DNA of 64,000 bases from Candidatus Accumulibacter cognatus. GTDB lineage: Bacteria > Pseudomonadota > Gammaproteobacteria > Burkholderiales > Rhodocyclaceae. Of this stretch, positions 11,748 through 53,637 are shown piece by piece. The stretch spans positions 2,413,553 through 2,477,552 of the forward strand of contig CP058708.1 in the NCBI GenBank assembly GCA_013414765.1. The letters run 5' to 3'. Numbering within the stretch: the first letter of the stretch is position 1; the number at the start of each line of letters is the position of its first letter. The position numbers and the translations under genes are program-made. A model generated the notes under the pieces. That model did no database searches and had not been told where the DNA came from. It saw only the letters and a program-made list of their open reading frames with translations.

Positions 11748-12620
11748 CCTCTCTCCCACCGTGAAGACGGTGAATCCTGTACAGGCGTCGCCGTCCGGGC
11801 CACCGGATCCTCCTCTCGGGCATCGACAACACCACTGACCAGATTGGCGGCATAAATCGCCTGCAGATCAGGCATCCCCACTTCCACCAGCGGCCCGATG
11901 CCGGCGATCAGTGCGTGCAGGGCTGCCGCGCGAGCGCGCGCCGCTCGTTCGGCATCCGCGACCGAAACGGCAGCAAAGCGGATGCACTGTCCCGGTGCCA
12001 GCACGGCCAGACGCGGCAGATCAGCCGAGATCACCGTGGCGATCTTCGGATAACCGCCAGCGGTATGGCCATCGGCGAGCAACACGATCGGCTGTCCCTG
12101 GCCCGGCACCTGAATCGATCCTGGCACAGTCGCGTCCGAAGTAATCTCGAAGCCTTTCTCGGGGCGATGTCTGAGCACCGGACCCTCCAGACGCATGCCC
12201 ATGCGATCGGCCGCTGCGGAAATCTGGTAAGCCTCGCCCAGGAAGCAGGCTAGCGACGCCGCAGTGAAGTAATCCTCCTGCGGTCCGGGAACGACGCGAA
12301 TCGGCGCCGCGTCCAGCGGCGGCAAGGTCCGCAGCATCTGTTGGCCGGCCCTGCCCTGGCCGACCGGCAGGCGGACTCCGGGCGACAAGCAGCGACCGTC
12401 GAGGCCACCGAGGCCGGCGGGCGCATACGTCGATGCGCTGCCGAGTTGTTTCGGGATGCTGATCCCGGCTAGCGCGAGGTAGCCGACCCGGCCCGGTGAC
12501 AGCATGCCACAACGCAGGGTCTCGCCGGGCGAAAGCGTCACACTGCGCCAGGAGTCGAGGCGACGACAGCCGTCGGCGCCGATTACTGCAGCCGAAAAAT
12601 TTCCGGCCAGCGCGAGCTGC
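11744..12620 (-). pseudogene. pxpC: pxpC 3' fragment (5-oxoprolinase subunit C, interrupted by prophage)
   Basis: The C-terminal part of a biotin-dependent-carboxylase-like/PxpC protein. Read upstream through the GTG at 12,541, the frame continues in the family sequence (LALAGNFSAAVIGADG...) up to the prophage end at 12,621. The missing N-terminal part is at 53,625-53,844, 41 kb away on the same strand. Joined at the GCTGC duplication, the two give a continuous frame: ...DSPVQ / LALAGNF.... The fragment could be translated from GTG 12,541 but would lack the N-terminal quarter. Confidence 0.93.
12616..12620. repeat. 5-bp target-site duplication, left copy (GCTGC)
   Basis: GCTGC abuts the prophage end TGTAAATT. 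The same five bases follow the other end at 53,625-53,629. A 5-bp duplication is what Mu-type transposition produces. Confidence 0.93.
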
Positions 12621-12636
12621 TGTAAATTCGCGCGCT

Positions 12637-12680
12637 ATTTGGCACAAACTTTGGTGATACTTGGCACAAGACATAGGCAT
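12637..12680 (-). promoter_or_regulatory. Phage right end: two tandem 22-bp transposase-site-like repeats
   Basis: Two adjacent 22-base units, starting ATTTGGCACAAACTTTGG (12,637) and ACTTGGCACAAGACATAGG (12,659), share TTGGCACAA. The inverse motif TTTGTGCCAAA recurs three times near the other end. Orientation and spacing match MuA end-binding sites (R1/R2-like). Confidence 0.75.
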
Positions 12681-12691
12681 ATTTACGGGCG

Positions 12692-12913
12692 TTAAACGAG
12701 AATTTCGACGATGGGCAGGGTCGGCGCAATGCCGTGAATTACACCCCCTCGAACAAACACCTTTTGACCCACCCCCGCGACGCCTTTGGCGGTGATCGTG
12801 GAGCCGTCCGGAAGGGTCACGATCCTGATCTCGTCGGCGATGCTGGAGACCTCTCCGACCAGCAAAGGATCACCCGGCAACAGGCTCAGAAAATCGCTCA
12901 GCAGGTTACTCAT
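12692..12913 (-). CDS. Small tail-end phage protein
   Basis: A 73-residue protein, the last gene of the late block, ending 71 bases from the phage right end. It is beta-rich (IRIVTLPDGSTITAKGVAGVGQKVFVRGGVIHGIAP), compatible with a small tail-tip or baseplate component. Its start overlaps the stop of the preceding tail gene by 8 bases, so it is probably translationally coupled to it. No family could be named. Confidence 0.7.
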   Translation of the reverse strand: MSNLLSDFLSLLPGDPLLVGEVSSIADEIRIVTLPDGSTITAKGVAGVGQKVFVRGGVIHGIAPTLPIVEILV

Positions 12914-14786
12914 GGCACTCGATCTCGATGGTTTGACGGACGGTCGGGAAGGTGGCGTTGAGGGAAACGCTACGCACCAGGCCGCGCCGGGAATCGGTGC
13001 CGTCGGAGAAAGCGACGAAGGCGCCCACAGGGTAGATTCCCACGCCAGAAAACACTGGCGTTTCCAGCACCAGATGTTGCTGCGGACCAGTGTCGGACAG
13101 CACCGAAATCCCCCGCTGCCGGGCCGCCTCGGTGTGGGTGGTCAGGGCGTCGACGATCATCGGGGCGAGCAGATCGCCCGCGGTGCCGGCACGGGTGACA
13201 TGCGCCAGAATCCCTTGCGCTTCGCCACTGAGATACACCGAGTTGTAGGCGGGCTTCTCCAGCCAGCGAACAGACTCGCGGGTAGTGGCCGCCGAGGGCA
13301 GGGAGAAATCAGGGACGACGCCGGACCAGTCCCACGGCGCGACCGGGTAACGCGGCAGGATGGACAGGGTTTTGCTGTGGCGGCTGGCCTGCACGTAGCC
13401 GCCAGCCGCGGCCGCGATGCGCGCGCAGGCGTCGATGGCGGCGCCGGTGTGGGACCACACGCCGGCCGGGATGAGCCAGTCCGTCAGATGCCAGTCCAGA
13501 TCCCAGCCGAGGCTCACCGCGTTGAACGTCAGCGCGTCCCCCATCAACTGCTGCGCGGTGCGGTCTGCTTCGTTGTGGCGGCTGATCACCGGTGCATAGG
13601 GCGCCCCCAGTTCGGCGGCCAGCCCGCGCCCGGAGACGGTGATACGGGCCTGGGCAAATCGCCGGTCGCGCGTGATTTTTTCCGCCAGCAGCCGGAAATT
13701 GACGCCGTTGACCACGGCTTCCACTTCGACCGGCTCCCCCGGCCCGGCCGGCAGGAGATCGCCGAGACTGGAGGCCGGCAGACTCGCACTCCAGCCCCAG
13801 ACCCACGAGCTGGAGTCGATCGAGAGAGATAGGGACAGGGCCGGCAGCGACAGCGTATTGGACACGCGAGTGAGCGTGACTTCGTTCAGCACGAGATAGG
13901 TCCTCCGGACAGGAATGATGACCCGCCCCCCCTTCCCGAGCCAGGGAAAGACCAGATGCGGGCTGCCGATGTAAGGGTCCGGGTCGGGTTCCGGCCCAGG
14001 GGGAAGGGGCGATCGACCCGCCGCCGGAGCCCGCCCGATCTGCCAGGGGTGAGACACGAGCAGACGATTGGGCGACCCGCTGCCGGCCGACAGATCGAGC
14101 AGGATGACGCGCGGAACGCCCTCTTCCCAGGGGGCAGACAGGGTCGGGCGCGCCCGGCGAAACAGCTCGATCCAGTCGCATGCGGTTTGCCGCGGCCTCT
14201 GCGAGGCGGCCGTAAACGGGGCCTCGATCGCCGGTCGAACGGCCCTCGACAGCGGCTGGAATCCCTCCTGCACCGCGGTGGCGCGGGGTTGCCCCTCGGT
14301 CCAGACGACCTGCACGGGTGGACGGCGATCCCGTTGCTGCGGTTGCCAGGCACTCTCGACGCGTTCCCCCCGGCGCAGCGCGCGGCGGGCGATGGCCGAG
14401 ACCTCGACCTGCCCGGCGCGCGGCGCACGATGCCCGATCCGGGACTGTTGGCCCCGCGCAGGCGCCTGCTGCCAGGCATGATCGGCCCAGCGGAACGGCG
14501 CCCGGTTCACGGCATTGTCGTAACTCAAGGCGAACGCCGGCGCCGGCGCCGGCAGCGTGGCCGCGCTCGAGAGCGCCGGCACGCGCGCAATGGCCAGCGC
14601 CAGGGGCAGCCCCGCCCCCGCAGCCAGCCCCAGCGGCACGGCGCCGGCCACCAGCGGGCCGTCCAGGGTGGGCGCGGGCGGAACGAAAGCGCTTCCGAGG
14701 CGCTGGATGATCGGCGGGTTTCCCGTCCGGCCGAATACCAGATCGGGACCGGCCAGGCCTTCCGCGAAGAGCAGGTCGATCCCCAC
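12906..14786 (-). CDS. Large phage tail-tip/hub protein
   Basis: A 626-residue protein from GTG 14,786. The N-terminal half is Ala/Pro/Arg-rich with no clear domain. The C-terminal half (about 300-626) is more ordered, with VNGVNFRLLAEKITRDR, ALTFNAVSLGWDLDWHL and WDWSGVVPDFSLP. That half resembles tail-hub or tip proteins of siphophages, in which similar beta-domains surround the tail tube exit. Position at the distal end of the tail module supports a tip role. The assignment rests mainly on context. Confidence 0.6.
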   Translation of the reverse strand: MGIDLLFAEGLAGPDLVFGRTGNPPIIQRLGSAFVPPAPTLDGPLVAGAVPLGLAAGAGLPLALAIARVPALSSAATLPAPAPAFALSYDNAVNRAPFRWADHAWQQAPARGQQSRIGHRAPRAGQVEVSAIARRALRRGERVESAWQPQQRDRRPPVQVVWTEGQPRATAVQEGFQPLSRAVRPAIEAPFTAASQRPRQTACDWIELFRRARPTLSAPWEEGVPRVILLDLSAGSGSPNRLLVSHPWQIGRAPAAGRSPLPPGPEPDPDPYIGSPHLVFPWLGKGGRVIIPVRRTYLVLNEVTLTRVSNTLSLPALSLSLSIDSSSWVWGWSASLPASSLGDLLPAGPGEPVEVEAVVNGVNFRLLAEKITRDRRFAQARITVSGRGLAAELGAPYAPVISRHNEADRTAQQLMGDALTFNAVSLGWDLDWHLTDWLIPAGVWSHTGAAIDACARIAAAAGGYVQASRHSKTLSILPRYPVAPWDWSGVVPDFSLPSAATTRESVRWLEKPAYNSVYLSGEAQGILAHVTRAGTAGDLLAPMIVDALTTHTEAARQRGISVLSDTGPQQHLVLETPVFSGVGIYPVGAFVAFSDGTDSRRGLVRSVSLNATFPTVRQTIEIECHE

Positions 14787-14793
14787 TGGCCGC

Positions 14794-15195
14794 TCACGGC
14801 TCGGTCAGGGTCGCGCCGAACAGAAAAACGAATGCGCCGGCGTACAAATCGAGGTCGTCGAGTGTGAAGACCGCCCCAGGGGTGCCGGTAAGCGCGACGT
14901 GACCGTCGATCAGCCAGTAACCGTCGCCGTCCCGAGCGCGAGCCCAAAGGACTTGCCCGCTTGCCGCGACTTGCGCCGGTTGCGTCGTCGCGAAGTGGAT
15001 CACCCCATTGGTGACGGTGCCGCAGGGTTTTTGCAGGGTAATTACCGCCGCCGCACTTCCGCCGGGGTCCGCGCCGGCGGCCGGCTGGGTCGTGTAGTAC
15101 AGCGATAGCGTCGCCGGCGTTGCCGCCCGGTCGAGCTGGGCGACGGTCGCAAGGGCGCGGGCAGTGCGCAGCGAATCGGCAAACGACAAGCTCAT
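14794..15195 (-). CDS. Hypothetical phage tail-tip protein
   Basis: A 133-residue protein. The N-terminus (ADSLRTARALATVAQLD) is helical, followed by beta strands such as ATLSLYYTTQPA and GVIHFATTQPAQV and a C-terminal hydrophobic stretch. Its start overlaps the preceding gene's stop (ATGA at 15,192-15,195), so the two are probably made together. I do not recognise a family; context places it among the tail-tip/fibre genes. Confidence 0.6.
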   Translation of the reverse strand: MSLSFADSLRTARALATVAQLDRAATPATLSLYYTTQPAAGADPGGSAAAVITLQKPCGTVTNGVIHFATTQPAQVAASGQVLWARARDGDGYWLIDGHVALTGTPGAVFTLDDLDLYAGAFVFLFGATLTEP

Positions 15196-16241
15196 GGGAT
15201 CAGCTCCGGAATCACCCCGTCGGCGATGACGGCGTTAAACAGCCCGGTGTGGTCGTGCGACATCAGCACATACGGGACATCGTGACGGATGCGGTCGAAG
15301 GCGTAATTTCCGTCGGCATCGCTCCAGATCTCGCGCGCCAGCGCGCCGTCGCGCTGGCGCAGCAGGCGCACGCGACGGGATACCGGATAGTCCGGGTCGC
15401 CGTCGGCCTGGGTCGTGCCGACGATCCGCCCCCGGCCGCCGTGCTCGGCGTCGAGCAGCAAGGCGGGCGGGCTTTGCCGGACGGCTTTCCAGGCCGGCCG
15501 CGCGGGCTGGACCAGCGGAAAAGCCGGCGCGGCCCGCGCATAATTCAAGGAAAACCCTTCCTCGAACGGCCCACTTGCCGGGGCATAGGCGCTATCGTGG
15601 CGCCCCCATTTGCACAGGATACGCAGTTCGCTGAGGTATCCATTCAGCGCCGCGTCGACCGTCGGATAGCCGGATTGATCGCCGCCGATGCGGACGATAT
15701 TACTGGTGCCCCCGGTGGGCATGTCCAGCCCGGTGCGTGAAGCGATGATCAGGCCGTTTTTGAACATGAGCGCCGTGCCGTTAAACACCGAGATCTCGAA
15801 ATCTTGCCAAGTGTTCAGCGACACCTCCCCGCCGGTGGCGAAGAGGAAATTTTTTCCGCTCAGGGGGACATAGGCCCCCATATCATGAAATTCGTTCAGG
15901 GCGACGCAGAAGGAGCTGCCGGAGCCGTTGGTCCCGATATTGACGATCCGGCACTGATTCCCGGCCGCCGGATACGCCAGCAAATACAGCGAAAACGAAA
16001 TCGACAGCGAGGTCGCGCCGGTGAAAATGAAATCTGCCGACGCCGCGCAGCTCAGCCGGTCGCTGGCGCCGCCCGGAAAGTAGGCTGACCCCTCGCCCGC
16101 AAACCGGCTCTGTGCCGTCGAGATGGCGACCGCCCCAGAGCGCGTAAACGTATGGCCCTTGACATCCGGGAAGGACGTCGACCCGTGGCTGCCGGACAGA
16201 TGCAGTCCGGCATTGAGCAGGGGCCAGAGCGGATCACCCAT
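15192..16241 (-). CDS. LamG-like phage fibre/tip protein
   Basis: A 349-residue protein with a jelly-roll (LamG/concanavalin-like) domain in residues about 25-210 (GEGSAYFPGGASDRLS, SISFSLYLLA, WQDFEISVFNGTALMFKNG). Then comes a small carboxypeptidase-regulatory-like segment at about 280-330 (VRLLRQRDGALAREIWSDAD, YAFDRI). Such lectin-like modules are common in adhesive tail proteins, so a role in surface recognition is likely. It sits between two large tail-tip genes and is coupled by ATGA to the gene downstream. Confidence 0.65.
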   Translation of the reverse strand: MGDPLWPLLNAGLHLSGSHGSTSFPDVKGHTFTRSGAVAISTAQSRFAGEGSAYFPGGASDRLSCAASADFIFTGATSLSISFSLYLLAYPAAGNQCRIVNIGTNGSGSSFCVALNEFHDMGAYVPLSGKNFLFATGGEVSLNTWQDFEISVFNGTALMFKNGLIIASRTGLDMPTGGTSNIVRIGGDQSGYPTVDAALNGYLSELRILCKWGRHDSAYAPASGPFEEGFSLNYARAAPAFPLVQPARPAWKAVRQSPPALLLDAEHGGRGRIVGTTQADGDPDYPVSRRVRLLRQRDGALAREIWSDADGNYAFDRIRHDVPYVLMSHDHTGLFNAVIADGVIPELIP

Positions 16242-16247
16242 GACCGA

Positions 16248-17423
16248 TTACCGCCACGGCCCGGTGGTATCGAAAAAAGCGAAAGCCGCCGTCGTGACCC
16301 CGGCGCCGAAGGGCATGACCCGAACTTCCCGGTCGAGGAGGTTCGCGACGTTGGCAATCGACGCGTTGGCGGCGAACAGCCCGAGCGGAACCGTCTGCGG
16401 GCAGCAGTAGACGCCTGGCGCGACGCCGCGGAAAGCGCCGGCGAAAGACTCGAACAGGTTCGTCTGCGACAGGTACAGCCCTTGATCCGGCCCATTCGGA
16501 TAGGGCATGGGACCGGCGCCGCTGGCAAAACCGACACTGGTCGAGGGCGTCAGCAGGCTGAAGGCCTTGTACGCCGTCGCCGAACTGCCCACCCCGCCAT
16601 ACGACCGCGCGAAATACAACTCGTCGGCGGCGTTGCGCAGCACCCCGAAATCGTTGGTGTCGCCCGGCGCCGACCCGCTCTTGTCGCTGGCGTAGCCCGA
16701 GAGCACACACGCCCAGGCGTCGCCCGATTTGACCGGCAGAAAATCGCCGAAGGCAATGAAAGCGCCACCCGCCGGATAGGTCGGGTGATAGGCGGTGATC
16801 AAATAGAACATCCGGTCATCGGCGACCAGCGTCCAAGCCCGCGCGCTGCCATCCGCGACCGTGCTCTTCGTCCACCAGGACCCGCCACTGCGCTGCGTAC
16901 TCGTCGGGAACGGCCCGCTGCCGGTGCTGATGGCGGTCATCGTTTGGTAGCCGACCACCCTCGCGGTCTTGCCGGCCGTATCATCGACGCGCAGCAGACA
17001 CTGCGTCGCCGCCACATTACCGCTCTTATAGGCGGCCAGATTCGTGCCCGAGAACGCCTTGCTCCACCCCGCCCCGGCCAGCTTCAGCGAAATCGTCCCG
17101 CGCGCCGTCTGATCGCTGATCCCGGTGGCGTCGAACGTCAGCGTGGTGTTGCCCGCGCCGACCGACAGGACCTTCTTCTCGCCATTGAGCCCGCCCGGCG
17201 CCGCCCCGGACACGAGCACCACGCTGCCGACTTCGGCGCTATGGCCGGCGCTGATCGTGGCCGTGGCGACGCCGCCGGAGACCACCAGGTTGGCCACGGC
17301 CGAGACCGCGAAGCCATTGACCAGGCAGGCATCGAGGACCGCGATCAGCGATCCCGCGGTGCCGGACAAAACAGGCGCTCCGGTCAGCCCGGAGTGGAAA
17401 AATTTAACGCTGGTATCCGTCAT
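16248..17423 (-). CDS. Hypothetical phage tail/fibre protein
   Basis: A 391-residue protein rich in Gly, Ala, Ser and Thr, with a beta-rich N-terminal part (about 20-140: VVSGGVATATISAGHSA, LTFDATGISDQTARG). A central region carries aromatic residues and a cysteine pair near the C-terminus (GVYCCPQTVPLGLF). Composition and position indicate a virion surface protein. I do not recognise a named family. Confidence 0.6.
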   Translation of the reverse strand: MTDTSVKFFHSGLTGAPVLSGTAGSLIAVLDACLVNGFAVSAVANLVVSGGVATATISAGHSAEVGSVVLVSGAAPGGLNGEKKVLSVGAGNTTLTFDATGISDQTARGTISLKLAGAGWSKAFSGTNLAAYKSGNVAATQCLLRVDDTAGKTARVVGYQTMTAISTGSGPFPTSTQRSGGSWWTKSTVADGSARAWTLVADDRMFYLITAYHPTYPAGGAFIAFGDFLPVKSGDAWACVLSGYASDKSGSAPGDTNDFGVLRNAADELYFARSYGGVGSSATAYKAFSLLTPSTSVGFASGAGPMPYPNGPDQGLYLSQTNLFESFAGAFRGVAPGVYCCPQTVPLGLFAANASIANVANLLDREVRVMPFGAGVTTAAFAFFDTTGPWR

Positions 17424-17438
17424 TTTGAGAGTCCAGGA

Positions 17439-20400
17439 TCAGGGAGTATCGACATCGCCGCGGATGCCGAGGATGAATTGGTCGCTGCTCTCCGCCGGCG
17501 GCCCTTGCAGCACGGTGCGCGCCACCCAGACCGGGGAATTGGCCGCCACGGTGTTGAACCGAACCAGGTTTCCGGCGGACCAGCCCGCTCCCCAGCCGGC
17601 CGGCTGAATGCTGAAATAGGGCACGCCGGTCGCCGGGTTGATCGGCGCGATCACGTTCGCGATGGCCACCGCGGTCAGAATCTGGCCGATGGTTTCGCCG
17701 ATCACATTGACCGTCGTGGTGTTGGTGAACTGGATCAGCCAGCGCTCCTGGAGCGCGCCGCGATTGCTGACCGTGACCGGATACTGCACGGTGTTGTAGC
17801 TCGCGCTCGCCGCGCTGCCGATCAGCGTATCCGACCACACGCTGGTCCAGGTCGCCTGGTCGAACCAGTGCGACACCCGCGCGTGCAGGTCGCCCAGGAT
17901 CAGCGCCGAGCTGACCAACGACCCGAGCGGGAAATCATGCGTCAGCGGCCGCGTCAGCGTCAGTTCCCCGTTGATCTGGGCATCCGAACACAGCGCCATG
18001 TCTTCGATTCGATGCTCGATGGTCACTGGCTGCGAGTAGCCCGTGACATCGGAAAACGTCACCGTGCCGGCGTCCAGGTCGTGCGTGTAACCCGCACTGA
18101 TCGTTTCGCCGTCGTCGCCGAGGACCCGCACCCGCGCGACGCGCACCCGCCCCAGGTTGACCGTCTGGGTGTTGCTCACCGTCGCCGGCGCCGTCGTCGC
18201 GGTGTGGTGGATCACGACCACGTCGCCTTTGCGCAGGATCGGCACGCGCCCGTCGACGGGCAGGCGCACCGGGTCCAGGCCCAGAACGTCAGCCGACAGG
18301 GGCAGGTTGGAGACCGCCACGGCGTTAAACAGGGCAGTTTCCGGCATCACCAAAAGGGGCTTGAAAATCTGCCCGGAGACCACGCGCGCCGGGTGATACC
18401 ACCACTCGGACTTCTCCTCGGGCGAGAGCCCGGCATCGGAGACCCAGGCGCCGAAACGCAGCGACACGATGCCAAACTGCACGTCCACCGTGCCTTCCAC
18501 CTCGGCGGTCTCGATGTCGCCATTGAGCGCGCTGCTGGCGCTGATCTGCACGCTGTCGGTCGCGCGCACGGTACGGATCGCCAGGCTGGCCGGCTGCAAG
18601 GGCGCGCCGGAGACCCGGAATTGGAACTGCCAGTCATCCCAGAAGCCCTTGCGCGTCAGGCATGACACGACGAGGGCCGGCACGCCCCCGGCGGCGTAAT
18701 CGCTGACCGAAACGCTTCCGGTCGCGTAGTTGACCGTCCCGGCGATGGTGCCGCTGTTGGTATCCGCAGAGACATTGCGCAGCAGCGTGCCATCGCGATC
18801 GACATAGACACTGCCGCCGAACGTGAAGCGCAGACTGTTGGGGACCAGGGTATTCGAGGTGGTCGGCAGCAGATCGATCCGCAGCGCCTCGATGGCCTGC
18901 GAATGCGTCAGCAGGGCGCCGGCGCTGTCGGTCGCCTGGCGATAGCGGGCGGTGATCGTCCCGGTCGCGACGACCGTGGCGAACGTCTCCTGCCAGGTGT
19001 GCGTTTCGACGACCGCCTCCGGGGAGCCGCTGAAGCTGCGCGCCTGGTGGGTGTCCAGGAACGTGACCTGCGCCCCCAGGGCGACCGCGCCGGTGGTGTA
19101 ATTGATCGACCCGCCGACGCCGGAGGTGGAATTCAGCACATGGGACGTGCTGGCGGTCACGCCCTGCGGCTCGTTCCAGGTCCGATCAGCGGTGACCCGT
19201 GGCGTGACTATTCGCAGCAGCAAGGCGCCGGTGCCATCGTCGCAGACGATGTACTCGGTTTGCCGGCTATCCTGAAAGGATAGGGACAAGCTCTTGGGCA
19301 GCACCGCATGGCTCAAACTGAAATTCGACGAAGCGCCGCCGGCGGTAAACACCTCGGTGACGTTCAAGCCCTGCCGGTACGTCGTCACCAGATCCGAATC
19401 GCCGTCCGGAAGCTGGTCGGGAAGCAGTGCCGCCCGACCCGTCGCGTAATCGATCCAGCCGGATCCTTGCCCGGAGAGCGCGCCTCCGGAATCGTCGATG
19501 ACTACCCGGCCGATGCCATTGACCTGATAGGTGATCGTCACACTGCCGGGCTGGATCGCGCCGTCGGGCAGGGTGATCGGGATCGCCGGCACGTTGAACA
19601 CCGACGCGCCGACCTGCGCCTTGTAATGCGCTGGCGTCCCCCAGGCAAACAGGATCTGCGTGTTCACGTCGGGCAGCGCGCCGAGCGTCACGACCAGAGA
19701 GCCGGTCGCATAGTCGACCATGCCGGAGCCCACGCCGTCATCGCCGGTCAGCCCGCCGGCGCCGTTGTCCGCCAGACGATACCATTTTCCGAGCGCCAGA
19801 TAATCGACCGAAACCGACCCCGGCGCCGGCGCTGGCGACAGGGATTTGACGTAGGTATAGCCGCGATTGCCAACGCTGACCGCCGTGCTCGCGGTATGCC
19901 CGGCGGCCGCGATCGCGACGGCTTGCGCCCCCGCATAGCTGGCCGTACCGCTGATGCCGGTGCTCCTCGCCAGGCTGACGGCGCCGCTGGCGTAGTTGAC
20001 CGAGCCGGTGAATCCGGACTGGGCCACCAAGTTGCCCGCGCTGTCGTCGACCAGCGTCACCCCGGCGATAGTGACGGTGACCGATCCCATCGCCACCGCC
20101 CGACCGAAATAGCGCACCGCCGTGACGCCGGGCGAGGTCGTCACCGTCGAGGAAAAAGCGAGCCCCGGCGCGCCGGCAATGGGCACGATCAGATTGCGAT
20201 CGCCGACGCAACGCGCGTCGATGATCGGCGCTTCGGACAGCGCCGAGGGCACCAGTTGCGTGTAGACCGACTCGGCGCGCAGCGTCAGCGCCCCGAGCAA
20301 GGCGGCCTGCGCGAGGGGAGAGACGCCGTAATAGCTCGTCGCGTCGGCGGCGAAGGTGCTGTGAACGCGCGTCGGCGGGTTGTAATAGTCGTACGTGAAG

Positions 20401-45112: not shown

Positions 45113-45125
45113 GGGATGGGTCCTT

Positions 45126-47046: not shown

Positions 47047-47699
47047 TCCACCACCTCGCCGAGGTCGATCTGGTCGGCGCAATCGTCGGCGCCGTCCTGC
47101 CAGACGATTCGGTGCACGTTCGGGTCATAAACCGCTTTCAGGCGGGTGATCATCGGCGCGCGCGGTTTATTGCGGTGCTGCCGAACGCAGCGCCAGACGC
47201 TGGCGACGCCGCCCCGCCCGGTGCCGTGCCCCGGCACGACGAGCTCGAGATAGCCGGCGCGGCCGAGAAACCCGCAGTAATTCGCCGCGGTCGCGGGCTT
47301 GACCATCGCCAGCTCGGCGAGCAGGGGGGGCGTGAAGGTGTCCAGCACGGTGATCGCGTCCCACATCGACTGGGTGCCGCTGCCCTGCGTGACCGGCGAG
47401 CCATCGCGCCGGACGCGGGGGGCTTCGACGCCGTTATTTTTGGCCAGCACGCGCCCTTTTTTAACGCCGCGCCGGGCGCCGCCTTCGGATTCGGCCGCCG
47501 CGTGCAGGTAGCCCGCCGCCTCCAGGCCGATCAGGTATTCGCGCACGATCGGAAGTTCCACCTTGCTCAGGCGTGAAACGTCCTCTGCGTTGAATGCCCC
47601 GTGAGGGCTCACGGCGGCATGGGTCCGGATCGCTTCCCACACCCGTTGCCGCTGGCTCTTGCCGCCAGCCAGCTCGGTCACCGCGGGCAATCGCGACAT
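47043..47699 (-). CDS. Early phage protein with two winged-helix-like segments
   Basis: A 218-residue protein from ATG 47,699, which overlaps the MuB stop (TGATG). Residues about 15-70 (QRVWEAIRTHAAVSPHGAFN, VELPIVREYLIGLEAAGYLH) and 110-175 (SMWDAITVLDTFTPPLLAEL, ATAANYCGFLGRAGYLELV) both look like winged-helix domains. Probably DNA-binding; similar genes follow MuB in other transposable phages. No specific function can be named. Confidence 0.7.
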   Translation of the reverse strand: MSRLPAVTELAGGKSQRQRVWEAIRTHAAVSPHGAFNAEDVSRLSKVELPIVREYLIGLEAAGYLHAAAESEGGARRGVKKGRVLAKNNGVEAPRVRRDGSPVTQGSGTQSMWDAITVLDTFTPPLLAELAMVKPATAANYCGFLGRAGYLELVVPGHGTGRGGVASVWRCVRQHRNKPRAPMITRLKAVYDPNVHRIVWQDGADDCADQIDLGEVVE

Positions 47700-48478
47700 C
47701 ACGAGGCCCTCCGCTTGACGTCCGCCTGCTGCAGGGGCCGATCCCCCCAGCGCGCCAGGTCGCAATGGTCCCAGCCCTCGGCGGCGCCGGTCTCGAAGAT
47801 CTTGCGCAAGTTGTTGGAGACGCGCCGGACACTGCCGCGGGCGATCTTCACCAGGTGCGCCAGCAGGTCATCGGCCAGCGGCAATTGGGCGTTCTTGGCG
47901 CGGGCCAGGCGGCGCGCGTCCTCGAGGCTCACCGGCTCGGCGTAGAGCGTATCGAGCACACGGCCGTCGAACTTCTCCCATTTCTGGAGCTTCGCCGGCA
48001 TCGCTTCCTCGCCGATCAGGATGATCGATGCCCGGCTCATTTCGTAGATCGAGAACACGGCCATCACCAGGTTCTTGTCGATCGCGAAGTCGAACTCGTC
48101 GATGATCAGCGGCCGCCTCGCCTGGTGTAGCTGCGCCGCTACCCGTTCGGCGAGATGCTGGATCGTGCCCTTCGGCGGCTTGCCGTCGACCGACAATCCG
48201 AGCACCAGGCAGAGCTGCACCAGCAGACTCTTCCGGGTCACGAAGTCGTCGAGCTGCAGGTAGTACGCGCGGTGCCGGGCTTTCGCCCACGCCGCGGCCA
48301 CCGATTTGCCGTACCCAGACGGCCCGCTGACGACCATCATGCCGGGGTCGGTCGCGCCGCGATCCGCGAGCTGGAAAATCGCCTGCTCGATCACCGCGAT
48401 GTTCGTCAGCGGGGCGATTTGCCCCCCTTCGGGCAGGGGGCTGGCTGGCCCCTCCCGGTGAACTCTGTTTTCAGTCAT
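47699..48478 (-). CDS. MuB-like transposition ATPase
   Basis: A 259-residue AAA+ ATPase. ATG 48,478 was preferred to GTG 48,484 because of the GAGGTG site. Walker A is GPSGYGKSVAAAW, Walker B LIIDEFDF. The C-terminal domain continues with LADDLLAHLVKIARGSVRRV. MuB selects the target DNA, activates MuA and gives target immunity. A Mu-type N-terminal helix-turn-helix extension is short or absent here, as in the shorter MuB relatives of D3112-like phages. Confidence 0.92.
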   Translation of the reverse strand: MTENRVHREGPASPLPEGGQIAPLTNIAVIEQAIFQLADRGATDPGMMVVSGPSGYGKSVAAAWAKARHRAYYLQLDDFVTRKSLLVQLCLVLGLSVDGKPPKGTIQHLAERVAAQLHQARRPLIIDEFDFAIDKNLVMAVFSIYEMSRASIILIGEEAMPAKLQKWEKFDGRVLDTLYAEPVSLEDARRLARAKNAQLPLADDLLAHLVKIARGSVRRVSNNLRKIFETGAAEGWDHCDLARWGDRPLQQADVKRRAS

Positions 48479-48540
48479 AATCACCTCTCTCTGTCGTCAG
48501 AGCGGGTTCCCGCCCGCTCGGTCATCCCAGGACGCCCGTC

Positions 48541-50853
48541 CTATCGGGCGTCCGCCTCTTGCCTCGCCGCGGCCATGCTGGCCTCGGTCCGGAACATCGC
48601 AGTGCCGGGGAAGTGCAGCCAGAACCGCCGCTGCCAGGCTTCCTCCAGCACCTCCACTTCGCCGCCGTGCGCCGTCACGCGGGCGTCGTACAGCAGCCAA
48701 AGCTCGTATTTCTCGCGATTCGTCAGCCCCTCCAGCGGCGTCGCGTGCGCTTTCGCCGCCGGCAAGGCGGTCACGTTGCTCGGCGCCTCTTCCATCGCCT
48801 TGACCGCCTGTTCGGCGAGCGCCGCCGCGCGCGCCGAGGGCTTCGGCCCGGCCAGCGCCGCCACCGCTTTGCCGGCTTCGGTCAGTCCGTGGCTGCTGTG
48901 CGGGCTCGCCGTCTTGCCGAACTCGCCGACCACCAGCTTGCCGGCCGCCGCCGCCTGGTCGGCGAGATGCCGGTCGAGCAGCTCGCTGGTGGCTGTCAGG
49001 CCCTTGGTTTCGGCTTTCAGGCGCCGGCGTTGCTCCGCCGCCACGGCGCGCTTGATTTCGCTCGCCTTGAGGGCGATCTGCTGCCGGTCCGCGCCGGTGC
49101 GCTCGGCCGCTTCGGCGATGCACACGAAGTTTTTTCGGAAATAGACGACGATCCGCCCGAGATCCGGCGTTTCGTACACGTCCACCACGCTGCCCACGTC
49201 GATCCGCGCGAGGTCGGGCGCGTAAAACCACGTGCCGTCGAGCCGGATGCCCTTCTTCTGGGTCGTCCGTTGCCCACCGTCGGCCGGCTTGGCCAGCAAC
49301 AGGTCCAGGCTGCGCTCGTCACCGATCCGCCGCACTTCGCCGGTCCAGGACGCGGCCTGGGCGAAGGGGCTCCGGCCGAGGCTGGCGTGAGCGCGTTGCT
49401 CGTAGATGCCAGCCAGCCAGGTGTTGATCCGCCCCTGCATCGCCTCGGCGGTCATCGCCTCGAGGCCCAGCTCGCCGAAGTCCACCAGCTCGCCCTTCCG
49501 GGCCAGCCGGTCGGCGAACGATCGCCGCGCTTCGATGGCTTTGCGCTCGGCCACCGAGTGGCCGGTAAAGTGCGGCAAAAGCTCCAGAATCGAGTGGTTC
49601 AGCGTGCCGATGGCGCGCTCGACGTGCGGCTTCTCTTCGGGCGAGAAGGGGGCGGTCGTCCGGTGCTCGATGGAGAGCGCCAGCAGCGCCTGTTTGAAGT
49701 GCCCGGATTGGTAGTCCTGCCCGTTGTCGGTGAGGACTTCCCGCGGCACGCCCCAGGTCAACAGCGCCTGGCGCAGCGCGAAGCAGTGCGTCACCGTGCG
49801 CGGCGTGCGCGCCACCACCACCAGCATCCGCCGGCTCCAGACGTCGAGGATCACGCTCACCGTATGGCGCTTTTTCTGGCCGTCGCTGTCGAGCAGCAGC
49901 CAGTCGGCCGGCGTCGCGTCCATTTCCCAGCGGCCGTTCAAGGCCTTCACCTCGTCGCTGCACGAGCCGTAGGCGAGCAGGCATTGGTTCTTCCAGGCGT
50001 CCGGATTCGTCGCCTGCAGGTACAGTTCGCGGTGCTCCGCGATCCAGGTTTTCTGGAAGCGCATCACCTGGTCGTAACTCGGCGCGCGGAAGAGGATTTC
50101 TCCGGTTTTCGCGTCGATCGCGGCGGTCTTCAGCAGGTGGTGCAGTTGTCCGGTGCGGATTCCAGGCCGATCGAGCATCAGCTTTTTGGCGGCGGCGGCC
50201 AGCAAGGGGGTGGCGGCAAACGCGGTTTTGCCGGCGAGCTGGGAGCCGTTGCGGCGATCGACCAGGGCGGCGAGGTTCTGCGCCTCATAAGCGCCCACCC
50301 AGCGCTGCACCGAGCGCGCGGAAACCTCGGGGAAGGCCGCGCGAACGGCTTGCGAGACCGGGATTTCAACCAAGTTGTAGGCGTTCGCGTAGGGCGCCCA
50401 GCTCGCGGATTTTTTGAGAGGCTGCGCTTTCACGAACCAGATCTGCCAGCCCTGCGCAATCTCGCTGTGCGCGGACAGCGTCAGCGCCTCGCGCGCCGAC
50501 AGCCCGCCGGCGAGGTCGCGCAGCACCGCCTCGGCGGTCTGCTGCCGGCGCGCGAGGGCGGCTTCCTGCTCCTCCTCGAACTGCGCCAGCACGCTGGTCA
50601 GCGCCTTGATCCGCGCGCCCCGGGTTGCCGTGACGACGACGGTTCGGTGGTATGTCACGGCCTGACGCACGTCGGTGGGGAGGGTGGCGAGGGGGTAGAG
50701 GCGGCGCTGCCCGCCGCGAATGGCGATGGCTTCGAAGGGCCACGATTCGCGGTTCGCTCGCTGGGCCACGGCTTGCTTGGTCACCCCAAGCGCCTGGGCG
50801 ATTTCTACCAGGGTGGCGGTCACGGCGGGCAAAGGGGCGTTCATGGGGGGCAT
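48541..50853 (-). CDS. MuA-like DDE transposase
   Basis: A 770-residue transposase. An N-terminal winged DNA-binding domain (about 10-70, VEIAQALGVTKQAVAQRANR) is followed by end-binding domains. The catalytic core has D312 in RWEMDATPADW, D376 in LTDNGQDYQSGHF and E412 in HVERAIGTLN, with spacings of 64 and 36 close to those of MuA. A beta-barrel domain (RLDGTWFYAPDLARIDVGSV) and a helical C-terminal part for MuB contact follow. It should bind the TTTGTGCCAAA sites at both ends. Confidence 0.95.
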   Translation of the reverse strand: MPPMNAPLPAVTATLVEIAQALGVTKQAVAQRANRESWPFEAIAIRGGQRRLYPLATLPTDVRQAVTYHRTVVVTATRGARIKALTSVLAQFEEEQEAALARRQQTAEAVLRDLAGGLSAREALTLSAHSEIAQGWQIWFVKAQPLKKSASWAPYANAYNLVEIPVSQAVRAAFPEVSARSVQRWVGAYEAQNLAALVDRRNGSQLAGKTAFAATPLLAAAAKKLMLDRPGIRTGQLHHLLKTAAIDAKTGEILFRAPSYDQVMRFQKTWIAEHRELYLQATNPDAWKNQCLLAYGSCSDEVKALNGRWEMDATPADWLLLDSDGQKKRHTVSVILDVWSRRMLVVVARTPRTVTHCFALRQALLTWGVPREVLTDNGQDYQSGHFKQALLALSIEHRTTAPFSPEEKPHVERAIGTLNHSILELLPHFTGHSVAERKAIEARRSFADRLARKGELVDFGELGLEAMTAEAMQGRINTWLAGIYEQRAHASLGRSPFAQAASWTGEVRRIGDERSLDLLLAKPADGGQRTTQKKGIRLDGTWFYAPDLARIDVGSVVDVYETPDLGRIVVYFRKNFVCIAEAAERTGADRQQIALKASEIKRAVAAEQRRRLKAETKGLTATSELLDRHLADQAAAAGKLVVGEFGKTASPHSSHGLTEAGKAVAALAGPKPSARAAALAEQAVKAMEEAPSNVTALPAAKAHATPLEGLTNREKYELWLLYDARVTAHGGEVEVLEEAWQRRFWLHFPGTAMFRTEASMAAARQEADAR

Positions 50854-50923
50854 TCTGGAAAGAGGGAGGGGTCAGCAGGCGTCGGTAAAATGGGCAGGCA
50901 GGCGTCCAATCGTCGGTGTTACC

Positions 50924-51358
50924 ATGTACGCCGTGCATGAAATCAACCACCTCCTGAAAGCCCTCAACCGCTTCAACGCGCAGGTCATGGTGGCGCTCGA
51001 TAACGAGGCGCTCACGGAATTCGCCCGCGCCTTCCGCGACACACCCACCGCGAAGTGGCTCGCCTTGCGCGACGAGTTTTCCCATGAAATCCCGGTGTTC
51101 ATCGCGACACCCCAAGAGGAGTGGTGGGCTCGCTGGCCAGATCGTCTAACCAGAACGGCCCTGGCACTGGCGGCATGGCAGCTATCGTCGGATCTGGAGA
51201 TTCTGCTTTCCGAGATTCAAGATAGCGATCGATTACGGAACCCACTTGACCCAGCGTGGATGCGTGATCTGGCGAGCAAAGCTGTTGACGAATTCGCGCT
51301 AATTCGGCGATTTTCCTGCCTTTGGCCTGCGCAGCTCGGGTCGCCATTTGTAGACTGA
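50924..51358 (+). CDS. Possible plus-strand gene opposing the early operon
   Basis: A 144-residue frame (MYAVHEINHLLKALNRFNAQ...) lies between the MuA gene and the next early gene, on the opposite strand. Its first ~65 codons have strong GC-rich third positions and a helical, protein-like sequence. The second half overlaps the minus-strand gene 51,099-51,437 and looks less convincing. It might be a real small gene, or a remnant gene whose end is accidental. No clear ribosome-binding site. Confidence 0.4.
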   Translation: MYAVHEINHLLKALNRFNAQVMVALDNEALTEFARAFRDTPTAKWLALRDEFSHEIPVFIATPQEEWWARWPDRLTRTALALAAWQLSSDLEILLSEIQDSDRLRNPLDPAWMRDLASKAVDEFALIRRFSCLWPAQLGSPFVD

Positions 51359-51437
51359 CGCCGTCGAGTTCAGCGGCAACGCGGAACGCCTTCGCATGCG
51401 CGTCGAGGAGCAACGGGCTCCATTCCCCGGTTCTCAT
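51099..51437 (-). CDS. Hypothetical early phage protein
   Basis: A 112-residue protein from ATG 51,437, overlapping the preceding gene's stop. Its N-terminal third (EWSPLLLDAHAKAFRVAAEL) is followed by KGRKIAELARIRQQLCSPDH and an acidic, Pro-rich tail. It lies in the early operon upstream of MuA and overlaps the opposing frame at 50,924-51,358. No family recognised. Confidence 0.55.
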   Translation of the reverse strand: MRTGEWSPLLLDAHAKAFRVAAELDGVSLQMATRAAQAKGRKIAELARIRQQLCSPDHASTLGQVGSVIDRYLESRKAESPDPTIAAMPPVPGPFWLDDLASEPTTPLGVSR

Positions 51438-51871
51438 TGCATCGTCCCCATCACGCCCTTGATCCGCCGGATGCGCCGGCCCGCGTCTTCCTTGATCCGC
51501 TCCAACTTGCCGAGCTCGGCATCGAGCGCTTCCTTCCCGACCAGCACCTTGCAGCCGCGAACGTCGGCCAGCCAGGTGGTCAGCTCCCGCGTCTCCACCG
51601 CCACTTCGAAGGCCGGCACATACTCCAGCGGAAAGCGCCAGCCGTCGCGGCTGTCCGCCGTCCAGGAATCCAGTTGATGCTTGCTGATCGACGCGCCGGT
51701 CAGCGTGCTCATCGTTTCGGCAACTTCCTGCCGCGAGTGCTTCGAGCGCGTCATCAGATCGCTCAGCACATGTCGGATCGCCCGTCCGCAATCGAGCGAA
51801 CCGGGCGCCGGAAGCACCTCTACGGGCACCTCGAAAAGGTCGCGGGTCAGCGGGTCAAAACTTGTTTTCAT
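51434..51871 (-). CDS. Hypothetical early phage protein
   Basis: A 145-residue protein from ATG 51,871, preceded by GGAG; earlier in-frame codons overlap the Ner gene and look non-coding. It has PGSLDCGRAIRHVLSDLMTR, SRQEVAETMSTLTGASISKH and RFPLEYVPAFEVAVETREL, the last parts resembling a helix-turn-helix. The C-terminal helix is basic. Such genes often lie between ner and A in transposable phages. Function unknown. Confidence 0.65.
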   Translation of the reverse strand: MKTSFDPLTRDLFEVPVEVLPAPGSLDCGRAIRHVLSDLMTRSKHSRQEVAETMSTLTGASISKHQLDSWTADSRDGWRFPLEYVPAFEVAVETRELTTWLADVRGCKVLVGKEALDAELGKLERIKEDAGRRIRRIKGVMGTMQ

Positions 51872-51905
51872 GGTGTTTACTCCGTCGTGCGTTATTGCCA
51901 TTGTG

Positions 51906-52208
51906 TTAGCAACCAGAATGGCTAGAATGAAGCACGTGAGCCCCCCGAATACCGCGCCCTCTGGGCGTCCCGTCCGGGTGGTAGCGAGCGGCGAACATCT
52001 CCTGTACGGGGATGCCCACCGCATCGGCCAACCGCTTCTCGCTGGCCGGATAAGAGTGCGTCATCGCCTTGGAAAGCGTCGTCGGGCTGGTCAGCCCGTG
52101 CGCCTTGGCGAGGGCGCGCAAGGTGATGCCGCGCTTGTGCAAAGCGGCCACGATGTCGGCCGGATGCCAGTCTTCTGGACTGGCTTTTTTTGGGGGCTGT
52201 TTTGTCAT
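51906..52208 (-). CDS. Ner/Nlp-family regulator
   Basis: A 100-residue protein with the Ner/Nlp helix-turn-helix: HPADIVAALHKRGITLRALA, GLTSPTTLSKAMTHSYPASE and KRLADAVGIPVQEMFAARYH. In Mu, Ner shuts down early and repressor transcription and favours lytic growth. It is the first gene of the rightward early operon (minus strand here), facing away from the repressor. The last ~15 residues are specific. Confidence 0.9.
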   Translation of the reverse strand: MTKQPPKKASPEDWHPADIVAALHKRGITLRALAKAHGLTSPTTLSKAMTHSYPASEKRLADAVGIPVQEMFAARYHPDGTPRGRGIRGAHVLHSSHSGC

Positions 52209-52243
52209 CTGGTGGCGGTATCGGGTGGAGTGGAATTGATGGT

Positions 52244-52272
52244 ATTAGATACGCAAATTTGTCGTCAGTCAA
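52244..52272 (-). promoter_or_regulatory. Early promoter (Pe) for ner and the transposition operon
   Basis: On the minus strand TTGACT (52,272-52,267) and TCTAAT (52,249-52,244) are separated by exactly 17 bases, and the start of ner lies 36 bases downstream. This is a good sigma-70 promoter placed beside the operator repeats. Confidence 0.7.
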
Positions 52273-52294
52273 CACCTTTTACAGACACGTGTGT

Positions 52295-52410
52295 CGTTGA
52301 CACTTTAGCGTTTGCTCATATTTGGCAAAAACAGTGAAAAATCTATACAAATCAACGGGCAAAGAAAGTGTCAACGACCCCGACCAAGTTGACACTTTCG
52401 TTGACACTTC
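52295..52410 (+). promoter_or_regulatory. Repressor operator array and repressor promoter
   Basis: Four copies of CGTTGACACTT(T/C) occur at 52,295-52,306, 52,365-52,376 (inverted), 52,387-52,398 and 52,399-52,410. The first contains TTGACA, which with TATTTG at 52,319-52,324 (16 bases apart) could form the repressor promoter. Three copies lie within the apparent 5' end of the repressor frame. Confidence 0.65.
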
Positions 52411-52855
52411 CACTGTTATCGAATCGAGCACGGAAAGGCAGCAAATTGGCGCTCGGATGAAGGCAGCTAGGACGTATCTTGGCCTTAGCCAATCCAATTT
52501 TTGCGTACAAAGTGGCTACAACGTGCGTACTTACCAACGAAACGAAGAGGGGCGTAACGAGGCGGGAATTACCCTGGGGGCAGCGTTTGTTCGGGCTGGG
52601 ATCAACGCCAACTGGCTGCTGACGGGCGAAGGGCCGATGCGGATTGAGGATTTGGCCGGCGCGGAAACGCCCGGCGCGTTCGATCGGGAGCGCATGGCCG
52701 CCGCCATAGAAGCGCTGGAGGAAGTGCTCACGGAGGCCAAGCGCACCATGGCGCCGGCGAGGAAGGCCCAGGTCTTGCTGGCCGCTTACGACCTGCTGGA
52801 GGAGCCCAGCGCAACCAGGGAGAAGGTCATGCAGCTACTTAAATTCGCGGCGTAG
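52322..52855 (+). CDS. Phage repressor, Cro/CI-type helix-turn-helix
   Basis: The open frame is 177 residues from TTG 52,322, but a promoter -10 lies on that codon and operator repeats encode residues ~14-29. The real start may be downstream, up to ATG 52,457 (132 residues). The conserved part is an HTH_XRE domain (ARMKAARTYLGLSQSNFCVQ, RTYQRNEEGRNEAGITLG) followed by INANWLLTGEGPM, typical of CI-like repressors of transposable phages. The helical C-terminus probably mediates oligomerisation. It should hold the lytic promoter silent in the lysogen. Confidence 0.85.
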   Translation: MAKTVKNLYKSTGKESVNDPDQVDTFVDTSTVIESSTERQQIGARMKAARTYLGLSQSNFCVQSGYNVRTYQRNEEGRNEAGITLGAAFVRAGINANWLLTGEGPMRIEDLAGAETPGAFDRERMAAAIEALEEVLTEAKRTMAPARKAQVLLAAYDLLEEPSATREKVMQLLKFAA

Positions 52856-52878
52856 GCCGCTTTCAAGGAGGAAATGCA

Positions 52879-53637
52879 GTGCCACAAGAAGAAAAAAAAG
52901 ACCGCTTCAAGGCTCTGTTCAAGCAATCATTGGCGCCCGTGGAAGAGGACTCAAAAAGCCGGAAAACCCCGCCAATACTGGGAAAGAAGGTGGTCATCAA
53001 GGGCGACATGAACCACTTCGCGGAAGGGTCGACGCAACTCAAGGTGGTGCTGGTCGGGCCGCCGTCGGTCGTGCTCATCTCGAAGACCCAGAAAGCCGCC
53101 CTGGTCGAACGGCGCGACCAATGGGTCGATCTGCACAACACCGTGAAGGCGCGCCAGATCACCCGCAGCGACGCCCGCAAGGCCCTCAACGCCAAGGCCA
53201 AGGTCACGGCGCACCGCCTCATTCCCGCCGTTCGCTACGCCGATTTGATGGGCTGGCTCGAAGCCAGAATAGCCGCACTTCGTACCGCCGAACAGCGCCT
53301 CACCGAAAGCAACCGCCGCGACCTCGGCGCGTTGCGTCCCATCGTCGCCAACCCGGATGACGCCAACCCGGACACCGATTTAACGCCGCCCCACAAAGAA
53401 CGCCCCCCGCCCGGCCTGCGCTTGCTCAAATCCCCGAACGCCGGTCAGTTTGTGCCAAATACCACCTTAACGCCGGGCATTCAGACCGAAAAACAGGTTA
53501 TTTTGTGCCAAACCCAAACCCGCTTGAATTTTCCCCTCAACACCCCTCAAACCCTTGTCCCGCAAGGCCTCGCCCCTTCCCGCCTCTTCCCGCACCTCTG
53601 TGCCAACTACCCCCATGCCTCACAGCTGCACCGGTGA
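52879..53637 (+). CDS. Protein with ORF6C-like domain, reading out of the prophage
   Basis: A 252-residue frame from GTG 52,879, with a good AGGAGG six bases before it. Residues about 35-130 (KKVVIKGDMNHFAEGSTQLK, LVERRDQWVDLHNTVKARQI, TAHRLIPAVRYADLMGWLEA) resemble the ORF6C/Rha-type C-terminal domain of phage regulators. Residues after ~150 are Pro/Thr-rich and encoded by the left-end transposase sites. The stop codon lies in host DNA, 13 bases past the phage end. It is in the repressor operon, so it is likely expressed in the lysogen. Confidence 0.6.
   Translation: MPQEEKKDRFKALFKQSLAPVEEDSKSRKTPPILGKKVVIKGDMNHFAEGSTQLKVVLVGPPSVVLISKTQKAALVERRDQWVDLHNTVKARQITRSDARKALNAKAKVTAHRLIPAVRYADLMGWLEARIAALRTAEQRLTESNRRDLGALRPIVANPDDANPDTDLTPPHKERPPPGLRLLKSPNAGQFVPNTTLTPGIQTEKQVILCQTQTRLNFPLNTPQTLVPQGLAPSRLFPHLCANYPHASQLHR
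53448..53624 (-). promoter_or_regulatory. Phage left end: three transposase-site-like motifs
   Basis: GTTTGTGCCAAA (53,448), TTTGTGCCAAA (53,502) and TCTGTGCCAAC (53,597) are in inverse orientation to the TTGGCACAA repeats at the right end. Three sites, unevenly spaced, fit the L1-L3 layout of Mu. The terminal bases are CTCACA. Confidence 0.75.
53625..53629. repeat. 5-bp target-site duplication, right copy (GCTGC)
   Basis: GCTGC directly follows the phage end CTCACA and matches the copy at 12,616-12,620. Confidence 0.93.

What the first reader, a model, noticed from the sequence alone, without database searches (positions are those of the whole stretch)
12616..53629. Complete Mu-like prophage with readable ends, 5-bp duplication and host reconstruction
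Both phage-host junctions can be read: GCTGC|TGTAAATT at 12,616 and CTCACA|GCTGC at 53,625. Deleting 41,004 bp plus one GCTGC rejoins pxpC in frame (...DSPVQ / LALAGNF...). The element has TG...CA termini and a 5-bp duplication, as expected for Mu. All early, packaging and head modules have intact frames, so it may be inducible.
Basis: partly seen in the sequence, partly recalled or inferred. Interest (0 to 1): 0.72.

Follow-up and report, generated by a model that had tools for sequence, protein, structure and literature searches.

The report
Mu-like prophage with repeat-bordered cargo
A virus that spreads by jumping into DNA, a relative of phage Mu, sits apparently complete inside a bacterial gene; this is an ordinary kind of element, but its optional cargo genes are bordered by a small mobile repeat of the host genome, which may help explain how such viruses swap cargo.

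Summary
The element is 12,621-53,624 (41,004 bp), with TG...CA ends and GCTGC on both sides. Removing it plus one GCTGC gives a 363-aa pxpC frame. In 16 of 27 other same-genus genomes the site is continuous; 11 gave no match.

It is a Mu/B3/D3112-type transposable prophage: DDE transposase, AAA partner, GemA, Gam, Mor, Mu-type terminase, portal, F, protease and head genes. Both ends carry TTGGCACA at +19. The early end abuts different DNA in five other contigs. A related prophage in another genome probably has its own 5-bp duplication; one related contig shows none. No endolysin was recognised; inducibility is open.

They are bordered by four copies of a REPIN; the host encodes a matching RAYT. 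Two segments bracketed by this repeat are each absent from one of two closely related phages. Whether the repeats drive cargo exchange is unproven; separate insertion into free intergenic DNA is the main rival.

The parts
12616..12620 (.). target-site duplication GCTGC, late-end copy
53625..53629 (.). target-site duplication GCTGC, early-end copy
12621..53624 (-). whole transposable prophage, 41,004 bp; early end at 53,624, late end at 12,621
12621..12670 (+). late end: TGTAAATT..., TTGGCACA boxes at +19 and +41
   Evidence: same layout in L089 and, with variant boxes, G194
53451..53624 (-). early end: TGTGAGG..., TTGGCACA boxes at +19, +114, +167
   Evidence: +19 box conserved in L016, L017, L018, L020, L021
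11744..12620 (-). pxpC, 3' part (host)
   Evidence: CT_A_B profile 61-260
53630..53844 (-). pxpC, 5' part (host)
   Evidence: CT_A_B profile 1-42
48541..50844 (-). transposase A (767 aa), rve and Mu-transpos_C; likely DDE D309, D373, E409 (assigned by eye from motifs)
47699..48478 (-). transposition ATPase (MuB-like, AAA_22)
52322..52855 (+). HTH repressor candidate; start uncertain
52879..53637 (+). 252-aa reading frame of unknown function; its stop lies 13 bp inside host DNA; relatives in L015 and L016 (about 46% aa)
51434..51871 (-). transcriptional regulator (phrog_2345)
45957..46430 (-). GemA
   Evidence: Pfam PF06252
44582..45112 (-). Gam end-protection protein
43617..43907 (-). DNA-binding protein (phrog_379)
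43002..43406 (-). Mor-type late activator
42278..42916 (-). cargo site 2: 212-aa frame with CxxC motifs (seen by eye), no Pfam family; no DNA match there in the L015 phage
42203..42291 (.). REPIN 4, border of cargo site 2
37274..37819 (-). terminase small subunit (Mu Gp27)
35752..37008 (-). terminase large subunit (Terminase_6N and 6C); start uncertain
34085..35752 (-). portal
32764..34101 (-). minor head protein (Mu F-like)
32106..32669 (-). Neck1 / tail completion protein (Mu G-like)
31839..31928 (.). REPIN 3, right border of the SDH cassette
30702..31640 (+). SDH-type (ClpP-like) serine proteinase, cargo on the opposite strand to the head genes
   Evidence: Pfam PF01972 49 bits (cut-off 31.3); phrog_21683 E=2.2e-109
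30509..30596 (.). REPIN 2, left border of the SDH cassette
29355..30298 (-). cargo cassette A: small frames of unknown function, coding status uncertain
29081..29171 (.). REPIN 1
27751..28845 (-). head maturation protease (Mu I-like, PF10123)
27393..27749 (-). head scaffold
26414..27346 (-). major head protein
24782..25540 (-). major tail protein
21607..24681 (-). tape measure protein
17439..21023 (-). 1,194-aa protein of phrog_6128 (unknown function); listed homologues include an annotated tail protein
12692..17423 (-). tail and late-end genes

Best explanation
It is a temperate transposable phage of the Mu/B3/D3112 kind, integrated by its own DDE transposase with an AAA partner. Step 1 (inferred from family knowledge): transposase bound to TTGGCACA boxes at both ends joins the TG...CA termini to the two strands of the host pxpC gene, staggered by 5 bp. 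Step 2 (shown by its scar): gap repair leaves GCTGC on both sides and splits pxpC near codon 72. Step 3 (inferred): an HTH repressor near the early end keeps it silent; on induction Mor switches on late genes and copies are packaged from the early end with host DNA attached. Its accessory genes sit at two sites (Neck1-protease and Mor-late operon) and are bordered by REPINs of a family whose RAYT the host encodes. The borders are shown. I infer, less surely, that cargo was gained or lost between these repeats.
For: Ends, duplication and frame. Site continuous in 16 of 27 other same-genus genomes. Transposase, ATPase, GemA, Gam, Mor and Mu-type head genes. The early end with its +19 box abuts different DNA in L016, L017, L018, L020 and L021, five of the seven virus contigs whose transposase is at least 59% identical. 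In G194, a same-family genome, an end pair of the same design, 38,796 bp apart, is flanked by TGACC on both sides; see the caveat opposite. REPINs and cargo.
Against: Contig G067 has both ends but no duplication (CCGCT against CCGGC); a population assembly or packaged DNA could do this, but it is a miss. The G194 pair was picked from seven listed pairs that share a 5-mer, four of them tied for the top score; the stricter end motif that leaves only this pair was written after seeing it, so its duplication is likely rather than independent proof. No endolysin was recognised. No reads or particles were examined. No second full copy in this genome was found, and none of the 27 other same-genus genomes gave a full-length match to the transposase; the best, in G007, is a fragment with two stops.
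Confidence: 0.96

Rival explanations
1. The REPINs were inserted one by one by the host RAYT while the phage was a prophage. They sit beside cargo only because cargo sites hold nearly all of the phage's non-coding DNA. They play no part in cargo exchange.
For: REPINs are known as extragenic mobile units (PMC3116915, passages). Of seven gaps of 100 bp or more between the genes called by my own script, four hold the four REPINs. The host encodes RAYT, and 13 of 28 same-genus genomes, own included, hold the repeat. In the same phage pair the terminase and repressor blocks were exchanged without an exact REP motif there.
Against: By hand count 15 sites at E<=0.001 in 5.17 Mb (19 with weaker ones to E 0.05), four of them in 41 kb; binomial p 1.4e-5 on 19, although sites are not independent. 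The SDH segment is bracketed by two copies while the related phage has one partial copy; segment X is the reverse case.
Confidence: 0.45
2. The REPINs act mainly as two-way transcription terminators that insulate oppositely directed morons from the late head operon, and are kept for that.
For: Very stable hairpins, 0 of 200 shuffles as stable for each of four, DNA parameters. The SDH gene runs against the head genes.
Against: No run of five T's lies directly beside the hairpins (flanks); ordinary terminator-like sites are present at 31,789-31,811 and 32,061-32,082 (that scan does not look for hairpins with long loops).
Confidence: 0.2
3. A defective remnant rather than a working prophage.
For: No endolysin recognised by family scans.
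Against: Recognised transposition, packaging, head and tail genes are open. A relative 96-98% identical over long stretches exists in a virus contig collection.
Confidence: 0.1

Closest known systems
Pseudomonas phage D3112 (Casadabanvirus)
   Same: Order TerL, portal, F, Neck1, accessory genes, head protease, next structural gene, major head protein; portal 50.6% over 76% of the query.
   Different: Nucleotide match covers 1% of the 24 kb queried. D3112 has AcrF2 and two small genes at the accessory site, this has an SDH proteinase and REPINs. D3112 was not among the 20 of 21 transposase hits listed.
Pseudoalteromonas phage HS6
   Same: Transposase 32% over 88%, the best listed named match.
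   Different: Rest of the genome not compared.
Phage Mu
   Same: TG...CA ends, 5-bp duplication, and Pfam families named after Mu: GemA, Gam, Mor, Gp27, I protease, transposase C-terminus.
   Different: Not compared directly. The 1,194-aa tail-region protein matches Stenotrophomonas phage S1 and Pseudomonas phages (8 of 34 shown); that Mu is a myovirus is recalled.
REPIN / GTAG-type REP repeats with RAYT (PMC3116915, PMC2817692, PMC3733652; passages read)
   Same: GTAG foot, inverted doublet, hairpin, RAYT genes with the repeat beside them. The REP printed for Coxiella burnetii in PMC2817692 is nearly the same sequence.
   Different: Found inside a phage, at cargo borders; low copy number.
Moron / RGP accessory genes of P. 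aeruginosa Mu-like phages (PMC4378225; passages and section 11)
   Same: Low-GC cargo at fixed sites; site 1 is the place of AcrF2 in D3112 by gene order.
   Different: That paper saw no flanking sequence suggesting a common recombinase target and called acquisition mysterious; here one repeat family flanks two sites.

Membership tests
Transposable phages (Mu/B3/D3112, 'Saltoviridae') | DDE transposase with Mu C-terminal domain | tested here: met
   rve 41.7 bits, Mu-transpos_C 32.9 bits, phrog_310 E=4.8e-83; catalytic residues by eye
Transposable phages (Mu/B3/D3112, 'Saltoviridae') | AAA transposition partner and GemA | tested here: met
   phrog_296 and AAA_22; PF06252
Transposable phages (Mu/B3/D3112, 'Saltoviridae') | TG...CA termini with 5- or 6-bp target duplication (PMC8705779, passages) | tested here: met
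   5 bp GCTGC; probably TGACC in G194; not seen in G067
Transposable phages (Mu/B3/D3112, 'Saltoviridae') | Insertion at many different sites | tested here: met
   Different DNA beside the same early end in five contigs; packaged host DNA would look the same
Transposable phages (Mu/B3/D3112, 'Saltoviridae') | Genome about 36-39 kb (PMC8705779, passage) | tested here: inconclusive
   41.0 kb; the two cargo regions (28,846-32,105 and 42,082-43,001) make up 4.2 kb of it by coordinates
Transposable phages (Mu/B3/D3112, 'Saltoviridae') | Replicative transposition and virions with host DNA at the ends | not testable with these tools
   Needs induction and virion sequencing
REPIN | Inverted doublet of GTAG-footed palindromes that folds to one hairpin | tested here: met
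   Four copies, z -6.3 to -11.2; 10-copy alignment
REPIN | Cognate RAYT in the genome, flanked by the same REP | tested here: met
   Two genes in L090, 200.7 and 194.4 bits against cut-off 80, with exact REP motifs beside them
REPIN | Mobilised by RAYT | not testable with these tools
   Needs a transposition assay
Integron-like cassette array (considered) | Tyrosine integrase and attC sites | tested here: not met
   No tyrosine integrase family among the prophage proteins that were scanned (a few small frames were not scanned); the repeats are REPINs

The most novel reading that the evidence does not exclude
The phage uses a host mobile repeat as a portable joint: cargo genes are gained and lost between direct copies of a host REPIN at two fixed sites, one of them the place where D3112 carries its anti-CRISPR gene. 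A phage entering a host rich in the same REPIN would then have ready homology for picking up or dropping cassettes, and the SDH proteinase would be an anti-defence cargo gene acquired that way.
Probability: 0.25. Interest if true: 0.65.

Novelty: new member of a known kind. Interest (0 to 1): 0.4.

Why it matters
As a prophage it is a well-documented new lineage with exact ends, useful for annotating related genomes and virus contigs. The wider point is the border repeats. How accessory genes enter Mu-like phages was called mysterious (PMC4378225, passages), and another study found that transposable phages of Pseudomonas insert preferentially 55-61 bp from a REP-like palindrome, though only about 5% of insertions fall at such sites (PMC5977238 section 13). 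A phage whose cargo is bordered by a host REPIN, with two presence/absence pairs, makes the question testable.

Tried and rejected
SDH proteinase and site-2 protein in IMG/VR by back-translated patterns: no relative; the SDH proteinase has one match in named phages, Klebsiella phage ST13-OXA48phi12.4, 43%, which is not at a head site. PADLOC on ten cargo and unknown proteins: nothing. tRNA scan: none in the window, so no tRNA attachment site. A repeated operator around GAATTTCAAGCGGAATTTAACGCGG: only one place in the window. PF01797 in the own genome gave four hits and did not list the two RAYTs of L090; NCBIfam named them. REPIN against plasmids: six records match one arm only, 31-39% of the query.

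Rejected: integron cassettes (no integrase recognised); CRISPR-like array (only four copies, 1.3 to 10.4 kb apart); host genes joined by an assembly error (site continuous in relatives, kin in virus contigs). A simple homologous crossover between full REPINs does not explain the relative lacking SDH: its remaining repeat has lost the left arm, and the join falls at a shared CCGGCAA, so a short-homology deletion fits as well. I expected G067 to repeat the duplication; it does not. In G067 and G194 the Neck1-like match lies elsewhere, so site 1 there can be defined only by F and the protease.
Full report
What was claimed and whether it is there. The junctions read exactly as stated: GCTGC at 12,616-12,620 followed by TGTAAATT, and CTCACA ending at 53,624 followed by GCTGC at 53,625-53,629. 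The element between is 41,004 bp. Joined with one GCTGC, the flanks encode 363 aa without a stop. The two halves match different parts of the carboxyltransferase A/B family and lie between pxpB-like and pxpA-like genes, so pxpC is the interrupted gene.

Empty site. Of 61 genomes searched with the joined flanks, 22 matched, own genome included. Among the 27 other same-genus genomes, 16 matched and all 16 matches run across the join without a large gap; 11 gave no match at E<=0.001 (hand count). G026 (94%) and G019 (86%) cover all 535 bases. G019 has GCTGC at the site, G026 has GCTGA, and both have an open frame there.

What the element is. Reading from the early end (right side of the window): HTH repressor candidate, regulator, transposase A of 767 aa with rve and Mu C-terminal domains, AAA partner, GemA, Gam, a DNA-binding protein, Mor; then late genes with terminase small (Mu Gp27) and large subunits, portal, F, Neck1, protease I, scaffold, major head protein, tail genes. 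The acidic triad D309, D373, E409 was assigned by eye from motifs. The best listed portal hits are D3112-type phages at about 50% (8 of 235 shown). The best listed transposase match is phage HS6 at 32% (20 of 21 shown). By megablast the late 24 kb (12,600-36,600) matched 69 phage records, none over 80% of the query, and the 20 shown cover 1% each; the early part was not queried that way. At the DNA level this is a new lineage among named phages as far as tested.

Ends and mechanism. Each end starts with TGT and has TTGGCACA at +19; further boxes lie at +41 on the late side and at +114 and +167 on the early side. Five of the six TTGGCACA in the window lie in these ends. The early end recurs in five (L016, L017, L018, L020, L021) of the seven IMG/VR contigs whose transposase is at least 59% identical, each next to different DNA; the L015 contig starts just inside this end. 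This is what random insertion, or packaging with host DNA, predicts. A prophage in genome G194, same family but another genus (transposase 43%), has an early and a late end of the same design, 38,796 bp apart, both flanked by TGACC. This pair was found among seven listed pairs sharing a 5-mer, four tied for the top score; the stricter motif that singles it out was written afterwards, so I call its duplication likely, not independent proof. Against, contig G067 has both ends but flanks CCGCT and CCGGC, no duplication. Transposase binding, replicative transposition and packaging are inferred from Mu and its relatives, not shown here.

Distribution. In the 28 same-genus genomes only the own genome has a full-length match to the transposase; eight others match weakly or in part, the best being a fragment with two stops in G007. 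In 150 family genomes 31 match at E<=0.001, of which G194 alone comes near in score.

Completeness. The recognised transposition, packaging, head and tail genes are open. No endolysin was recognised in scans that covered the genes between Mor and terminase. 'May be inducible' is plausible, not shown.

Cargo. Between Neck1 and the head protease lies a low-GC island (0.53-0.61, against 0.69-0.73 to its left and 0.60-0.70 to its right) with an SDH-type serine proteinase on the opposite strand and small frames of unknown function. In D3112 the same place, between the Mu G-like and Mu I-like genes, holds AcrF2 and two small genes. In G067 the stretch between F and the protease holds a DUF4124 gene and two frames without a Pfam family, but its Neck1-like match lies elsewhere. 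In G194 F and the protease are close together. The L015 phage has yet another set. A second cargo site lies between Mor and the late genes.

The repeat at the borders. Four 88-91-bp palindromes lie at 29,081, 30,509, 31,839 and 42,203, all at cargo borders. Each is an inverted pair of a GTAG-footed REP and folds far better than shuffles (0 of 200 each). Ten aligned copies from this phage (4), a related phage (1) and the host (5) share both arms. By hand count the host genome holds 15 sites at E<=0.001, or 19 with weaker ones to E 0.05, four of them in the prophage (binomial p 1.4e-5 on 19; sites are not independent). The host has two REP-associated tyrosine transposase genes with the same REPs beside them. 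13 of 28 same-genus genomes, own included, hold the repeat. In IMG/VR the exact pattern occurs in 11 stretches, one of them the L015 contig; in INPHARED phages the REPIN had no match; in plasmids six records match one arm only. The REP is nearly the one printed for Coxiella burnetii (PMC2817692 passages).

Cargo presence and absence. The L015/L086 phage is 96-98% identical over three long backbone stretches. It lacks the SDH segment: sequence left of REPIN 2 continues directly into the right half of REPIN 3, joined at CCGGCAA. Conversely it has, at site 2, a small segment X between a REP and a REPIN, where the window has one REPIN; the backbone side matches over kilobases, the other side over only about 20 imperfect bases beyond the repeat before cargo differs. 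So in two cases a segment bracketed by the repeat is missing from the other phage, which keeps one whole or partial copy. This is n = 2 from one pair of phages. Other differences of the same pair, the terminase block and the repressor block, hold no exact REP motif, so the repeat is not needed for every exchange.

How I weigh it. That this is a Mu-type transposable prophage is near certain. That REPINs border its cargo is shown. That they cause cargo exchange is one of two readings; separate RAYT-driven insertion into the only free DNA is as likely or more so, since four of the seven gaps of 100 bp or more between my called genes hold the repeats.

Literature. PMC4378225 (passages and section 11) describes accessory regions in Pseudomonas Mu-like phages, reports no flanking sequence suggesting a common recombinase target and calls acquisition mysterious. 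PMC5977238 (passages and section 13) reports insertion hotspots 55-61 bp from a REP-like palindrome, about 5% of insertions. PMC8705779 (passages) gives TG-CA ends and 5- or 6-bp duplications as hallmarks. PMC3116915 and PMC3733652 (passages) describe REPINs and GTAG repeats. My searches, read as listings apart from the papers named here, showed no report of REPIN-bordered phage cargo; the library is open-access only.

Host name. The two named genome loci found with the transposase are a Rhodocyclaceae MAG (47%) and Pelomonas aquatica (35%). My searches for Accumulibacter papers followed a guess that was not tested.

Noticed in passing
own genome 578,546-578,947 (L091:6547-6947): Two REPINs in tandem with a sequence like the 3' end of the phage Neck1 gene and its terminator (81% over short stretches), in a region without other recognised phage genes: perhaps a remnant of a related phage's cargo border.
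   Followed up: partly
window 35,742-38,756 against L086: Terminase block replaced in the otherwise near-identical relative (TerL 26% aa): a module swap without an exact REP motif.
   Followed up: no
window 52,207-53,439 against L015: Repressor block diverged (repressor 42%, neighbouring frame 47% aa) inside a near-identical early region: the two phages may be heteroimmune.
   Followed up: no
own genome 750,732-750,840 (L002): Short relic of the 626-aa tail protein gene (55% over 65 aa), suggesting an older, lost prophage.
   Followed up: no
G007:C66:53191-53514 (L033): Transposase fragment with two stop codons in a same-genus genome: decayed relative of this phage.
   Followed up: no
window 37,009-37,273: Just upstream of the called terminase large subunit the long frame reads repeated SPLSP/GEGG-like blocks, suggesting another short repeat.
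   Followed up: no
window 38,829-42,081: Genes between Mor and terminase include relatives of podophage GP4 gp77 and gp80 fibre proteins.
   Followed up: no
L077:6130-6963 and L084:2962-3861: In two other virus contigs the same REP lies beside genes with a weak Mu F-like domain (25.9 and 30.6 bits, cut-off 29.6).
   Followed up: partly
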